From Planctomycetota bacterium (lineage in GTDB: Bacteria; Planctomycetota; UBA8742; UBA2392), in NCBI GenBank assembly GCA_027493625.1, contig JAOSKM010000001.1, forward strand, positions 773,489 through 837,488: a stretch of DNA of 64,000 nt, in the 5' to 3' direction. Shown here piece by piece: positions 22,005-41,149 of this stretch (positions within the stretch are counted from its first letter, which is position 1; each line of letters opens with the position of its first letter). The notes beneath the pieces were generated by a model. That model saw nothing but the letters and a program-made list of their open reading frames with translations. It made no database searches and was not told the origin of the DNA. Made by a program: the position numbers and the translations under genes.

Positions 22005-23093
22005 CTACGGTTTCTGCAACTGCTCCAGCGCCTTCACCGCTCGTTCCGCCAGGGCCCGCCGCGCTGGTGTCTGGGCGGCCACGGATTCGGTCGGCGCGCT
22101 TGCCCGCTCCGCCACGGCCGGGAAGGGCACCAGTTCAGTGCGCGGTGTGCCGGGCCTGTAGTCGCCCGCCTTGCCGCTATCCGCCACGCCGCTGCGCCCA
22201 TCCTCTTCAAGTTTCGCGGCCGTCGCCTGCAAGCTCGCGGCTGCCGCCTCAAGCCGGTCGGCGAGTGCCTGTCGGTTCGCCTCAGTGTCCGGCGCGACGT
22301 TCGGAATTTCTTCCGCGCTGAGGCCGCTGGATTCGCTCTCGCTTGAGCCCAGGGCATGCTTTGCTTCACGCAGTGCAGTCTCGCGCGCCGCCGGATCGGA
22401 AGAGGCATTGCGCAGCGTGGCGGCCGTGCGGTTGAGTTGCGCGGCAGTCTCTTTCATGCCCAGCGCCTTGCGAAGTGCCTCACGGTCGGCCGCGCTGCGG
22501 GAGCCCCCGGTATCAACGCCCGGCCAGTCGCTTGAGACTCCCGGCGTATCCCCCACCGCGGGTGTTGAATCCGCGGCACGGGGCGGCTGCGCACCGACGA
22601 CGGCGACGAGCGCAACGCCGGCCGCCAGGGCCAGAAGCGGCACCAGCACCAGCTTGCGGGTCGGGATCAGCAAAGGTGCGGGCGCCTGCTGCGCCTGGCG
22701 CAACTCGTCGGCTGCGCGGGCGAAAACCGGCGCCGCGAAAGCGCTGTCTTCCGGGATACGCAGGGCGGCGGCCAGGGCTCCGCTGTCGTGGGCAAGTCGC
22801 GCTTCGAGGGACAACGCCGCTTCCTGAAGGCTCGGCGTCCGGTAGCGGCGCAACTCCCAAGCTGCGCCGGCCAGGAAACCCGCCAGGGTTATCAGCAGCA
22901 GCGACGGCAGTCCGGCTTGCGACGCGAACAGCAGGCGCGGCAGCAGATACAGGAACACCAGCCCCAGTCCCAGCGCCGCCGCAGCGCCGGCCAGACCGCT
23001 GAAGGCCGCGCGGACGGCCTGACGCGCCACCAGCCGCGCGGCAACGCCGCGCAGGCGTGACTCCAGTTCAACTCGGGTGTTCAAAGCGTTCAT
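22005..23093 (-). CDS. membrane-anchored hypothetical protein
   Basis: Several hydrophobic helices (AAALGLGLVFLYLLPRLLF; LPSLLLITLAGFLAGAAW; LVLVPLLALAAGVALVAVVG), then a Ser/Ala-rich hydrophilic tail. Confidence 0.6.
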   Translation of the reverse strand: MNALNTRVELESRLRGVAARLVARQAVRAAFSGLAGAAAALGLGLVFLYLLPRLLFASQAGLPSLLLITLAGFLAGAAWELRRYRTPSLQEAALSLEARLAHDSGALAAALRIPEDSAFAAPVFARAADELRQAQQAPAPLLIPTRKLVLVPLLALAAGVALVAVVGAQPPRAADSTPAVGDTPGVSSDWPGVDTGGSRSAADREALRKALGMKETAAQLNRTAATLRNASSDPAARETALREAKHALGSSESESSGLSAEEIPNVAPDTEANRQALADRLEAAAASLQATAAKLEEDGRSGVADSGKAGDYRPGTPRTELVPFPAVAERASAPTESVAAQTPARRALAERAVKALEQLQKP

Positions 23094-23098
23094 GGCTG

Positions 23099-23899
23099 CT
23101 AGGTGGGCCAGGGTTCAAAGATCAGCGTAACGGGCGGCGAAACACCACGCACGGCCTGCGGGATTCCGTCTGCTTCGGGGTATGGCGAGTAGATATCGGG
23201 CAGGTAGGCGTCGTCGCGGTCGTTATCCAGCACGCAGGCCGAGTCGCGCCACATGCCGATCAGGTTGCCCTTCATGTCGGCCTCGAACAGTGATCGGTTG
23301 AGGTCCGGGCGATACTGCTCGAATCCGCCCGTGAAGATGAAACCGACCTCTTTCGGGTGGCCCTTGTTCTGGTGGTCCCACAGCCACTTCTCGACCGGCA
23401 CGGTGGTCGTTTCGCCGGTTTTGGCATGGGTGAAACGCACGCTCAGCTTCACGCGGTCGCCCAGCGGCTTGTCGAGGTAGCCGCGACCGGAGCGCTTCAC
23501 CTTGCCCTCGTGCAGCAGGATGATCTCCAGCGCGCGCTTCAGGTGCAGTCCACTGGCCGAGGTGGCGAACAGGCTTTCGTGGGTGTTGCCGCCCGGTGAG
23601 ACCAGCAGGTACTCAAGCGGCCGGGTCTGTGAGCCCAACAGCCAGGCGTCCATTTCCACTACGCGTCTTTCCGGGTAGGCACGCAGGCCGCCCTCGAACG
23701 CCACGTATTCGGATTCCTTCTGGGCGGTGGCCGGGGTATCAGGCCTGGCCGGCTGGGCGGGCTGGTCGGCTTCCTCGGTATTGCTGACAGGCGCGGATGC
23801 GGGCTGATTGGCCGGTGAGTTGGCGGTCACGTTGGAGCATGCCCCCAGCACCAGCAGGGCTACAACATACAAACCCAATGCGCGCAGCTTCATCATCAC
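23099..23899 (-). CDS. lipoprotein, YdjY-like domain
   Basis: Lipobox VLGACSN; GGLRAYPERRVVEMDAWLLGSQTRPLEYLLVSPGGNTHESLFATSASGLHLKRALEIILL. Confidence 0.6.
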   Translation of the reverse strand: MMMKLRALGLYVVALLVLGACSNVTANSPANQPASAPVSNTEEADQPAQPARPDTPATAQKESEYVAFEGGLRAYPERRVVEMDAWLLGSQTRPLEYLLVSPGGNTHESLFATSASGLHLKRALEIILLHEGKVKRSGRGYLDKPLGDRVKLSVRFTHAKTGETTTVPVEKWLWDHQNKGHPKEVGFIFTGGFEQYRPDLNRSLFEADMKGNLIGMWRDSACVLDNDRDDAYLPDIYSPYPEADGIPQAVRGVSPPVTLIFEPWPT

Positions 23900-39065: not shown

Positions 39066-39100
39066 AATTGACCCTGCCGGTCCCCAGACCGCCTGTAGTT

Positions 39101-41149
39101 TTACTCGCCTGCTTCTTCCGCGTCCGCATCAGCCGCTTTCGGCTCCTGGATCGGACCCAGCGTCAGCGTGACACTGACCTCGCTGACGCCGAACTTCACG
39201 TCGTTGCTCTTGCGCGAGGGGCGCACCGGACGCCCCGGCTTCTGAATCGTCACGCCGGAGGTGCCGATCAGGTCGCCGATGCGCAACTCGCTTTTCTGGG
39301 CGCCGTAGTCGAGGTTGGATATCTGGTTCACGATCACCGACGTGTTGAACTTGAGACTCCTGAGCTCCTGGGGGCTGACGCCTTCCAGCTGGCCGGTTGC
39401 GGTGAACTCGGCAATCAGCGCATCCTTCAGGCGGTCGGTCAGCAGCCCGTCGTCCACCAGCTTCTTCTTCAGTGCGTCGTGGGCCTGGTCCTGCCCGATC
39501 GAGCTGGTCAGTTCGGATGCGATCCAGACACGGTAGGTGATCACCCGCTTGGCCACGAAATGGCCGCCCGTTCCTTCGTCCGCGCCGACCCAGTTCGGCT
39601 CGATCGTGGATTCCAGCAGCGACGCCGTGGTGTTCAGCAGACCGCCGGTCAGGCCCTGGGGCTTGTAGTTGGCGTAGTAGACCCGGGTGCGCGGGTTGCC
39701 CGCGGCGTATTCCGCCAGCGCCTCGTGCGTGGCACGTGCCAGGATGCCCGGCGCCTCGTTGGCGCGCGCAGTCAGGTCGCGGGCCGGTGTGCCGGTGTCT
39801 TCTTCATCCTTCGGTTTCTGCTCCGGCAGCACTGCCGCCACGCCCTCGGCCAGGTTGCGCAACGAGTAAGCGCGCAAGGCCTCGTCGTCAGGCGGCTGCT
39901 TCGACTTCACCTCGGCATCGCGGGCGGTGGCTGCCGCCTTCAGGCTTTCCGCGTCGCCGATCACCGTGCTGACGCCGCCCGTGGACAGAATCGCCAGCAG
40001 CAGCGCGATGATGCCTCCCGCCGCCGCGATGCCGCCGGCCGCGAAGAACGGCGTGCGGATCTTGGCCAGGGCCTGGCCCTCAATGTACTCGGGCGGAATC
40101 AGGTTGATGGTGTTGACCTCGTCCAGCTCCAGGCCCTGCAGCGCGAGGCCGATGGCCACGGTCAGGCTCTGGATGTTGTTCTGGACCTCGGTGGGGTCCA
40201 CGCTGCGCGCCAGCGACACGCGCACCGGGGTGTCCACCTTGTGCACCTGGTACTGCAGCTGCTGCTCGAAGAACTTCTTGATGTTCAGCAGCTTGCTGCC
40301 GTTGCCCATCATCACCAGCTGGTTGATGTTGGCGTCTTCGTTCTGTGACTTGTAGAAGCCCACGGCGCGGTAGATCTCGCCCACCATGTCCTTCAGGGGC
40401 GGCTTCATGGCCTCGAACACCGCGGCGGCGTCCTTGCTCTTGTGGGCGCGGCGCTTGAGGTTTTCGGCGTCATCAACCGACAGCTTGAAGCGGGCGCGCA
40501 GGGCCTTGGTGATGTCGTTGCCGGCCACGGGCACCACGCGTACGTAGGTCTTCTGGCCGTCAATGATCACGACGTCGGTGTTGTCGGCGCCGATGTCGAT
40601 GGCGACGCAGGCGTCGCTGACGGCGTCGTCCATCTCGTACTTGATGTAATTGTAGATGCCCAGCGGCGCGACCTGGATGCCGGTGATCTGCAGACCCGCC
40701 ATATCGCAGGTGTCCACGATCTGGTCCACCACGTCCTTCTTGGCGGCGTACAGGTTGACGCGCAGCTCGTCGGGGTCTTCCTCGTCGATGATCTGGAAGT
40801 CCCAGACCGCCTCCTCGAGCTTGATTGGAATCTGCGAGCGCGCTTCGTTTTCGATCGTTTCGCGCACGCGTTCCTTGGCTACCGGCGGCAGGCTGATGAT
40901 GCGGCCCAGGGTGTTCTGCCCGGAGATCGAGACGAACACCTCGTCGCCCTTCTTGATGCCTTTGCTTGAGCGCAGTTCATTCAGCGCGCCCGCCGTGGCA
41001 TCCTGGTGGCTGCTGCCGGCGCCGAGCCCGAAATCGGCAAGGGCGATGATCGCGACATCCTCAAGTGAGACGCCGCCGCGGTCCCCGCTCAGCTTCACGG
41101 CCTTGACGCTCGATGTACCGAGCTCAATGCCCCATGCGGTCTTTGCCAT
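39101..41149 (-). CDS. pilM: PilM-like actin-fold protein with fused PilN-like INLIP motif, TM and periplasmic region
   Basis: MAKTAWGIELGTSSVKAVKLSGDRGGVSLEDVA...VAIDIGADNTDVVIIDGQKTYVRVVPVAGNDITKAL... then NTINLIPPEYIEGQALAKIRTPFFAAGGIAAAGGIIALLLAIL. Confidence 0.85.
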   Translation of the reverse strand: MAKTAWGIELGTSSVKAVKLSGDRGGVSLEDVAIIALADFGLGAGSSHQDATAGALNELRSSKGIKKGDEVFVSISGQNTLGRIISLPPVAKERVRETIENEARSQIPIKLEEAVWDFQIIDEEDPDELRVNLYAAKKDVVDQIVDTCDMAGLQITGIQVAPLGIYNYIKYEMDDAVSDACVAIDIGADNTDVVIIDGQKTYVRVVPVAGNDITKALRARFKLSVDDAENLKRRAHKSKDAAAVFEAMKPPLKDMVGEIYRAVGFYKSQNEDANINQLVMMGNGSKLLNIKKFFEQQLQYQVHKVDTPVRVSLARSVDPTEVQNNIQSLTVAIGLALQGLELDEVNTINLIPPEYIEGQALAKIRTPFFAAGGIAAAGGIIALLLAILSTGGVSTVIGDAESLKAAATARDAEVKSKQPPDDEALRAYSLRNLAEGVAAVLPEQKPKDEEDTGTPARDLTARANEAPGILARATHEALAEYAAGNPRTRVYYANYKPQGLTGGLLNTTASLLESTIEPNWVGADEGTGGHFVAKRVITYRVWIASELTSSIGQDQAHDALKKKLVDDGLLTDRLKDALIAEFTATGQLEGVSPQELRSLKFNTSVIVNQISNLDYGAQKSELRIGDLIGTSGVTIQKPGRPVRPSRKSNDVKFGVSEVSVTLTLGPIQEPKAADADAEEAGE

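What the first reader, a model, noticed from the sequence alone, without database searches (positions are those of the whole stretch)
22005..41149. Candidate secretin system coupling a PilM/PilN-type assembly to an ExbB/ExbD proton channel module
Seen: 13 consecutive minus-strand genes. Order is PilM(-PilN) fusion, bitopic protein, TM-anchored EF-hand protein, lipoprotein TPR-secretin, ~1360-aa exported repeat protein, exported TPR-like protein, ExbB, ExbD x4, YdjY-like lipoprotein, TM protein. No pilin, PilB/PilT ATPase, PilC or prepilin peptidase is encoded in the window. Established: PilM/N/O/P plus secretin form the type IVa pilus/T2SS alignment complex, and ExbB/ExbD use the proton motive force to drive periplasmic work. 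Inference: this could be an envelope-spanning secretin machine energised by PMF rather than a cytoplasmic ATPase. The alternative is that ATPase and pilin genes lie elsewhere and the ExbBD block is a neighbour.
Basis: partly seen in the sequence, partly recalled or inferred. Interest (0 to 1): 0.82.

Follow-up and report, generated by a model that had tools for sequence, protein, structure and literature searches.

The report
Proton-powered secretin machine of planctomycete bacteria
Many planctomycete bacteria carry one conserved gene block that appears to encode a machine spanning both cell membranes, pairing a secretin outer-membrane gate related to Akkermansia's mucin-use "pilus" proteins with a proton-driven motor, and it is a testable candidate for how these bacteria move large molecules across their outer membrane.

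Summary
The 13 minus-strand genes are real. The order is PilM-PilN fusion, Amuc_1100/PilO-like protein, EF-hand/FN3 membrane protein, TPR-secretin lipoprotein, giant repeat protein, TPR protein, ExbB, four ExbDs (two types, duplicated), YdjY-like lipoprotein and a TM protein. The host is a Planctomycetota MAG.

The linkage is not a neighbour effect. In a 399-genome phylum sample, 88 genomes had both a TPR-secretin and an ExbB among the listed best hits; in 70 the two lie within 20 kb on one strand. All 27 non-family loci read in detail keep TPR-secretin, repeat protein, ExbB, ExbD-short and ExbD-long. Motor residues are invariant. This genome's only ExbB and ExbDs lie in the block.

Canonical type IV pilus genes lie elsewhere with their own PilQ. 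PilM, bitopic protein and secretin match Akkermansia Amuc_1101, Amuc_1100 and Amuc_1098 (mucin-utilization locus MUL2) best, but below family cut-offs. Relatives usually carry a second TPR-secretin after the ExbDs; here its counterpart lies 1.2 Mb away.

Best reading: an envelope-spanning secretin complex driven by proton motive force, perhaps importing macromolecules. Motor-secretin coupling is well supported; force transducer, substrate and direction are inferred. An orphan PilB-like ATPase is not excluded.

The parts
39101..41149 (-). PilM-PilN fusion: PilM_2 domain (21-352), PilN-type INLIP motif at 362 (numbering from the TTG at 41191), one TM (384-402), periplasmic C-terminal part
   Evidence: Pfam PilM_2 3e-41; NCBIfam best hit Amuc_1101_fam 196 bits vs 154 for pilM; motif and TM
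37974..39065 (-). Bitopic Amuc_1100/PilO-like protein: N-terminal TM, coiled coil, alpha-beta domain
   Evidence: AF2 pLDDT 83; Foldseek PDB top nine hits all Amuc_1100 (E 1e-4 to 1.7e-2), then PilO
35961..37919 (-). TM-anchored EF-hand plus fibronectin-III-like protein (the Amuc_1099 position)
   Evidence: AF2 pLDDT 81; Foldseek FN3 chains and calcineurin; weak EF-hand Pfam hits; TM 16-34
33023..35797 (-). TPR-secretin lipoprotein (secretin 1): lipobox Cys51, TPRs, STN, secretin barrel
   Evidence: Pfam Secretin 5e-29, STN, TPR; NCBIfam best hit Amuc_1098_fam 120 bits
28690..32865 (-). Giant exported repeat (TPR-like solenoid) protein, about 1,390 aa; a homologue is present in all 27 phylum loci
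   Evidence: HMM family; TPR Pfam domains in homologues
27342..28670 (-). Exported TPR protein; its positional counterpart in another family matches YbgF/CpoB
   Evidence: Pfam TPR weak; counterpart L059 tol_pal_ybgF 3.5e-17
26447..27193 (-). ExbB/TolQ-type proton-channel subunit, the only one in the genome
   Evidence: Pfam 3.6e-25; sole genome hit; channel Thr166/Thr201 invariant in 35 of 35
25895..26404 (-). ExbD short type, copy 1 (Asp23)
   Evidence: Pfam 2.5e-17; Asp invariant in 44 of 44
25257..25874 (-). ExbD long type, copy 1 (Asp23)
   Evidence: Pfam 7e-11; Asp invariant in 55 of 55
24619..25125 (-). ExbD short type, copy 2 (Asp22)
   Evidence: Pfam 2e-14
23985..24605 (-). ExbD long type, copy 2 (Asp25)
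   Evidence: Pfam 1.6e-9
23099..23899 (-). YdjY-domain lipoprotein, found in the family loci only
   Evidence: NCBIfam YdjY 67 bits over cut-off 50; 10 of 11 family loci
22005..23093 (-). Three-TM protein of unknown family, adjacent to YdjY in relatives too
   Evidence: No Pfam or NCBIfam hit; synteny in L020, L021, L048; TMs

Best explanation
The block encodes one trans-envelope machine. An inner-membrane platform (PilM-PilN, Amuc_1100/PilO-like protein, FN3/EF-hand protein) holds a lipid-anchored TPR-secretin in the outer membrane. Long periplasmic TPR solenoids link that gate to an ExbB-ExbD proton motor built with two different ExbDs. Proton flow through ExbB and ExbD, not a co-encoded PilB ATPase, does work on the periplasmic TPR/secretin part, for example opening the gate or pulling bound polymer inward. 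Shown here: gene content, conserved linkage, intact motor residues, fold kinship to Akkermansia MUL2, and separate canonical T4P genes. Inferred: physical coupling of motor and secretin (about 0.7 by itself), absence of any ATPase input (about 0.6), and inward transport of polysaccharide or other macromolecules into the periplasm (about 0.35).
For: Phylum-wide linkage and spacing: ExbB 5.3-7.7 kb downstream of the TPR-secretin, same strand, in 67 genomes; 70 of 88 linked in all. In all 27 deeper loci read, secretin, repeat protein, ExbB, ExbD-short and ExbD-long occur together. The genome's only ExbB and ExbDs are in the block, 15 of 16 family genomes have exactly one ExbB match and the 16th has two partial matches on two contigs. 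Proton-channel residues are invariant. No pilin motif and no PilB hit in the window. Canonical T4P with its own PilQ elsewhere. PilM, bitopic protein and secretin are closest to Amuc_1101, Amuc_1100 and Amuc_1098, whose locus is tied to glycan use and accumulation (PMC13174399; PMC12418764). Planctomycete dextran uptake is abolished by the uncoupler CCCP and enters the periplasm by an unknown route (PMC5394234). A sulfatase gene sits between ExbD and secretin 2 in six of eight relatives tested.
Against: No complex has been shown. No TonB/TolA-like (SHLS) or vWA transducer was found in the block. Orphan PilB/GspE-like ATPases exist. The genome also has one TonB-like gene and one TonB-dependent receptor that could use this ExbBD. 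PilM is clear in only 10 of 27 deeper loci. In four near-complete genomes of family f28 secretins and ExbBs are not linked; f28 is thought, from genome size only, to be the family of Planctopirus, where uptake and crateriform structures were studied. MUL2 in Akkermansia is described as a pilus for attachment.
Confidence: 0.6

Rival explanations
1. ATP-driven pilus-like fibre: the PilM/Amuc_1100-like/secretin arm works with an orphan PilB-like ATPase and pilins encoded elsewhere, as a divergent type IV pilus like the one proposed for Akkermansia MUL2; ExbBD only tunes or co-regulates it.
For: Several T2SSE hits (C1:1807746, C1:1970229, C2:647888, C2:703477) lie far from any secretin hit; MUL2 is described as pilus-like with Amuc_1102 resembling an archaeal pilin; PilM-N with the INLIP motif is typical of ATPase-coupled platforms.
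Against: No PilB hit or prepilin motif in the window; none recognised among the core genes of 27 deeper loci; canonical T4P has its own PilM-N-O-Q; ExbB-ExbD co-occur at fixed spacing in all core loci.
Confidence: 0.17
2. ExbB-ExbD here is simply the housekeeping Ton or Tol motor of the cell, energising TonB with its receptor or stabilising the outer membrane, and merely shares an operon with the secretin.
For: It is the only ExbB/ExbD set in the genome, and one TonB-like gene and one TonB-dependent receptor exist; ExbB matches TolQ best and a TPR counterpart resembles YbgF/CpoB.
Against: Linkage to the TPR-secretin and the giant repeat protein is conserved across the phylum; in genomes with 6-7 ExbBs one set still stays with the repeat protein (G157, G109); no TonB/TolA gene lies in the block; two different ExbDs are kept in every core locus.
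Confidence: 0.12
3. Outward machine: the same PMF-driven secretin complex exports proteins, polysaccharide or a holdfast fibre rather than importing.
For: Secretins are mostly export gates; SiiAB-type PMF motors serve type I secretion (listed in PMC12204202); no import receptor is recognised in the block.
Against: No cargo gene is conserved in the block; kinship to the Akkermansia glycan-use locus and neighbouring sulfatases favour uptake.
Confidence: 0.15
4. Agl-Glt-like surface gliding or adhesion-complex motor (one TolQ, two different TolRs, TPR proteins).
For: AglRQS is also one TolQ homologue plus two TolR homologues with TPR partners, PMF-driven (PMC3169522).
Against: Agl-Glt is described with outer-membrane beta-barrel proteins and a TonB-like GltG, not with a PilM-PilO-secretin platform; no such transducer was recognised here.
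Confidence: 0.06

Closest known systems
Akkermansia MUL2 (Amuc_1098 to Amuc_1102; mucin utilization locus 2)
   Same: PilM-like protein, Amuc_1100-fold bitopic protein, an uncharacterised protein and a secretin; best NCBIfam and PDB matches of the window's proteins; same gene set and apparent order
   Different: Scores are far below the equivalog cut-offs (196 of 650; 120 of 750 bits); MUL2 as described has no ExbB/ExbD and includes the pilin-like Amuc_1102, not found among the block proteins scanned; here PilM is fused to a PilN part and the secretin is linked to a PMF motor and TPR solenoids
PVC TPR-TolQ-TolR-TolR cassettes with vWA transducer (PMC12204202)
   Same: A TPR gene followed by one TolQ-like and two different TolR-like genes, reported in the PVC group
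   Different: No vWA transducer here; the cassette is joined to PilM-secretin genes and, in relatives, usually followed by a second TPR-secretin
Type IVa pilus / T2SS alignment complex (PilM-N-O-P-Q)
   Same: PilM-PilN fusion with INLxP motif, PilO-like bitopic protein, secretin
   Different: No pilin, PilB/PilT, PilC or prepilin motif in the block; this genome has a separate canonical set
Ton and Tol-Pal systems
   Same: ExbB/ExbD with intact motor residues; TPR protein resembling CpoB/YbgF in a relative
   Different: No TonB, TolA, TolB or Pal gene recognised in the block; outer-membrane partner appears to be a secretin
Myxococcus AglRQS-Glt gliding machine
   Same: One TolQ-type and two TolR-type subunits with TPR proteins, PMF-driven
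   Different: No secretin/PilM platform described

Membership tests
Type IVa pilus / T2SS machine | PilM-PilN-PilO platform plus secretin | tested here: met
   PilM_2 3e-41, INLIP motif, PilO/Amuc_1100 fold, Secretin 5e-29
Type IVa pilus / T2SS machine | Extension ATPase (PilB/GspE) encoded with the secretin | tested here: not met
   No T2SSE hit in the window; hits elsewhere, PilB with PilT and PilC at C1:60-77 kb
Type IVa pilus / T2SS machine | Pilins with type-4 prepilin signal in the locus | tested here: not met
   No motif in six frames of the window
Akkermansia MUL2 (Amuc_1098-1102) | Amuc_1101 and Amuc_1098 family membership at the curated cut-off | tested here: not met
   Best-matching families but 196/650 and 120/750 bits
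Akkermansia MUL2 (Amuc_1098-1102) | Amuc_1100-fold bitopic protein next to PilM | tested here: met
   Foldseek top nine PDB hits Amuc_1100
Akkermansia MUL2 (Amuc_1098-1102) | Pilin-like Amuc_1102 | tested here: inconclusive
   No match among the ten block proteins scanned with NCBIfam; three not scanned, and a distant form could be missed
Akkermansia MUL2 (Amuc_1098-1102) | Role in glycan accumulation | not testable with these tools
   Needs mutants; literature only
ExbB/ExbD (TolQ/TolR, MotA/MotB) PMF motors | ExbB and ExbD domains above cut-off with channel Thr and TM Asp | tested here: met
Ton or Tol-Pal system | TonB/TolA transducer with SHLS motif in the locus | tested here: not met
   No TonB_C Pfam hit in the block and no SHLS-like motif in block proteins; one TonB-like gene elsewhere
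Ton or Tol-Pal system | TolB and Pal | not tested
   Not searched genome-wide; no such Pfam hit in the block
PVC vWA-transducer cassettes | TPR, TolQ and two different TolR genes in a row | tested here: met
   TPR-ExbB-ExbD short-ExbD long
PVC vWA-transducer cassettes | Downstream vWA protein | tested here: not met
   No vWA Pfam hit in the block
Agl-Glt gliding machine | Glt envelope proteins | not tested
   Only the motor stoichiometry was compared

The most novel reading that the evidence does not exclude
A class of secretin machine not described in the papers found, conserved across many families of Planctomycetota, in which a proton-driven ExbB-ExbD motor (with two kinds of ExbD) replaces the cytoplasmic ATPase and works through TPR solenoids on one or two TPR-secretins to pull macromolecules into the periplasm. 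This would supply the missing outer-membrane route for bulk or selfish uptake in these bacteria.
Probability: 0.3. Interest if true: 0.9.

Novelty: new variant of a known kind. Interest (0 to 1): 0.74.

Why it matters
Well-studied secretin machines (T4P, T2SS, T3SS) are driven by cytoplasmic ATPases. A conserved secretin locus with its own proton motor would be a different way to power an outer-membrane gate. It also gives named genes for the open question of how planctomycetes bring intact polysaccharides and proteins across the outer membrane, a process reported to be CCCP-sensitive and of unknown mechanism (PMC5394234, PMC11131199). It suggests that the much-studied Akkermansia Amuc_1100 belongs to a wider family of envelope machines in the PVC group, and makes the prediction that a proton motor may be the partner of the Akkermansia complex.

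Tried and rejected
Rejected: that ExbBD is an accidental neighbour; that the secretin belongs to this genome's T4P or T2SS. Considered and not supported: a direct link to the crateriform structures and dextran uptake of Planctopirus/Gemmata. Four near-complete f28 genomes, thought to be Planctomycetaceae from size alone, have secretins and ExbBs that are not linked.

First gene calls by longest ORF were poor in this GC-rich DNA and were replaced by HMM- and codon-guided calls. In one search the line 'genomes with listed hits of both: 113' is a script error (a defaultdict filled itself); the correct figure, 88, is.
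Full report
OBSERVATION. The 13 minus-strand ORFs are there. In reading order they are PilM-PilN (39101-41149), bitopic protein, EF-hand protein, TPR-secretin, 1,391-aa repeat protein, TPR protein, ExbB, ExbD x4, YdjY lipoprotein and TM protein. Gaps between them are 5-163 nt. 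Pfam and NCBIfam support PilM, secretin/STN/TPR, ExbB, four ExbDs and YdjY. No prepilin motif occurs in any frame of the window, and no PilB-type hit of the genome lies in it.

THE GENOME. The window sits in a 4.7-Mb, 6-contig Planctomycetota MAG, 87% complete. The genome has five secretin hits. PilQ (C1:585.8 kb) sits in a canonical set of pilins, PilM, PilN- and PilO-like genes, and PilB, PilT and PilC lie at C1:60-77 kb. A GspD-like secretin is on C3. Two are TPR-secretins: the window's and one at C1:1999.6 kb. The fifth is weak (25 bits). ExbB occurs once and ExbD four times in the whole genome, all in the block. One TonB-like gene, apparently split between frames, and one TonB-dependent receptor exist elsewhere. 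Some PilB/GspE-like ATPases stand apart from any secretin hit, so an ATPase acting in trans cannot be excluded.

CONSERVATION. In the five nearest genomes the block is syntenic, including the upstream DUF6687-rpiB-Sua5-pssA-STN genes, with proteins at about 35-97% identity. Profile searches of 399 Planctomycetota genomes with ExbB and with the TPR-secretin show co-location: of 88 genomes with both among the listed hits, 70 have them within 20 kb on one strand and 67 have ExbB 5.3-7.7 kb downstream. Only the best 150 hits of each search are listed, and only two secretin candidates per genome were scored, so these are counts within a listed sample, not phylum frequencies.

GENE ORDER ACROSS THE PHYLUM. 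Among 38 loci read in detail (11 of the window's family, 27 of other families), all 27 outside the family carry secretin 1, the long repeat protein, ExbB, ExbD-short and ExbD-long, and 23 of 27 carry a second TPR-secretin downstream. These 27 were chosen because ExbB and secretin were linked, so the new information is the ExbD pair, the repeat protein and secretin 2. A clear PilM is found in 10 of 27. In several others a short TM protein and an FN3-like TM protein precede the secretin, but their kinship was judged by eye only and Pfam gave nothing. In a maximum-likelihood tree secretins 1 and 2 fall on two sides of one branch (87/89), and the window genome's unlinked TPR-secretin falls with secretin 2. 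The window's lineage therefore appears to have separated secretin 2 from the block and doubled the ExbD pair.

MOTOR. The ExbB threonines (166, 201) are invariant in 35 of 35 sequences, and the ExbD aspartate in 44 of 44 (short) and 55 of 55 (long) (the sets include paralogues and a few duplicate loci). The motor is thus very likely functional, with two kinds of ExbD.

KINSHIP. The PilM-PilN protein and the secretin match the Amuc_1101 and Amuc_1098 families better than any generic PilM or PilQ model, but far below the equivalog cut-offs. The AF2 model of the bitopic protein (pLDDT 83) retrieves Amuc_1100 as the top nine PDB chains, then PilO. The upstream half thus corresponds to Akkermansia MUL2. 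The downstream half matches a TPR-TolQ-TolR-TolR cassette noted in PVC bacteria together with a vWA transducer; no vWA protein was found in this block. I found no paper that joins the two halves, but the original Akkermansia MUL study is not in the library.

HOW IT MAY WORK. Shown: parts, linkage, motor residues, fold kinship. Inferred: PilM-N, the Amuc_1100-like protein and the FN3/EF-hand protein form an inner-membrane platform aligned with the lipid-anchored secretin; the TPR proteins bridge the periplasm; ExbB-ExbD proton flow moves the periplasmic part. Direction and cargo are unknown. Import of polymers is favoured by the MUL kinship, by a sulfatase gene between ExbD and secretin 2 in six of eight relatives tested, and by CCCP-sensitive macromolecule uptake in planctomycetes. 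The last point is weak, because family f28, thought from genome size to be that of Planctopirus, shows no such linkage in four near-complete genomes.

VERDICT. The finding is real and stronger than first stated: a conserved PMF-motor/secretin locus of many Planctomycetota families. It is best filed as a new variant that joins two known kinds, with a plausible but untested claim to being an ATPase-independent secretin machine.

Noticed in passing
G000 C1:1999560-2001749 (L024:14552-17350): Second TPR-secretin lipoprotein of the same genome, unlinked to the block but in the secretin-2 lineage of other families' blocks.
   Followed up: yes
window 44853-46562: STN-like protein with no Pfam match, kept upstream of the block (with pssA, Sua5, rpiB, DUF6687) in family relatives.
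   Followed up: partly
window 20814-21995: Myo-inositol-1-phosphate synthase gene starts 9 nt after the last gene of the block and may be co-transcribed.
   Followed up: no
window 18229-20123: Two tandem diguanylate-cyclase-like (GGDEF) proteins downstream of the block, seen by eye.
   Followed up: no
L037 (G000 C2:360351-363557): The genome's TonB-like gene looks split between two frames (assembly indel or decay), beside porin-like ORFs.
   Followed up: partly
L053, L054, L056, L061, L063, L064; L066, L075: Between ExbD and secretin 2 other families insert a sulfatase (often with TPRs) or a PLP-dependent decarboxylase gene.
   Followed up: partly
L027:2420-9964: Another PilM/GspL-like gene with pilin-like and bitopic neighbours but no secretin hit nearby.
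   Followed up: no
G327, G381, G369 and other f28 genomes: Several secretins lie in very long open frames (about 1,300-1,600 aa) in this family.
   Followed up: no
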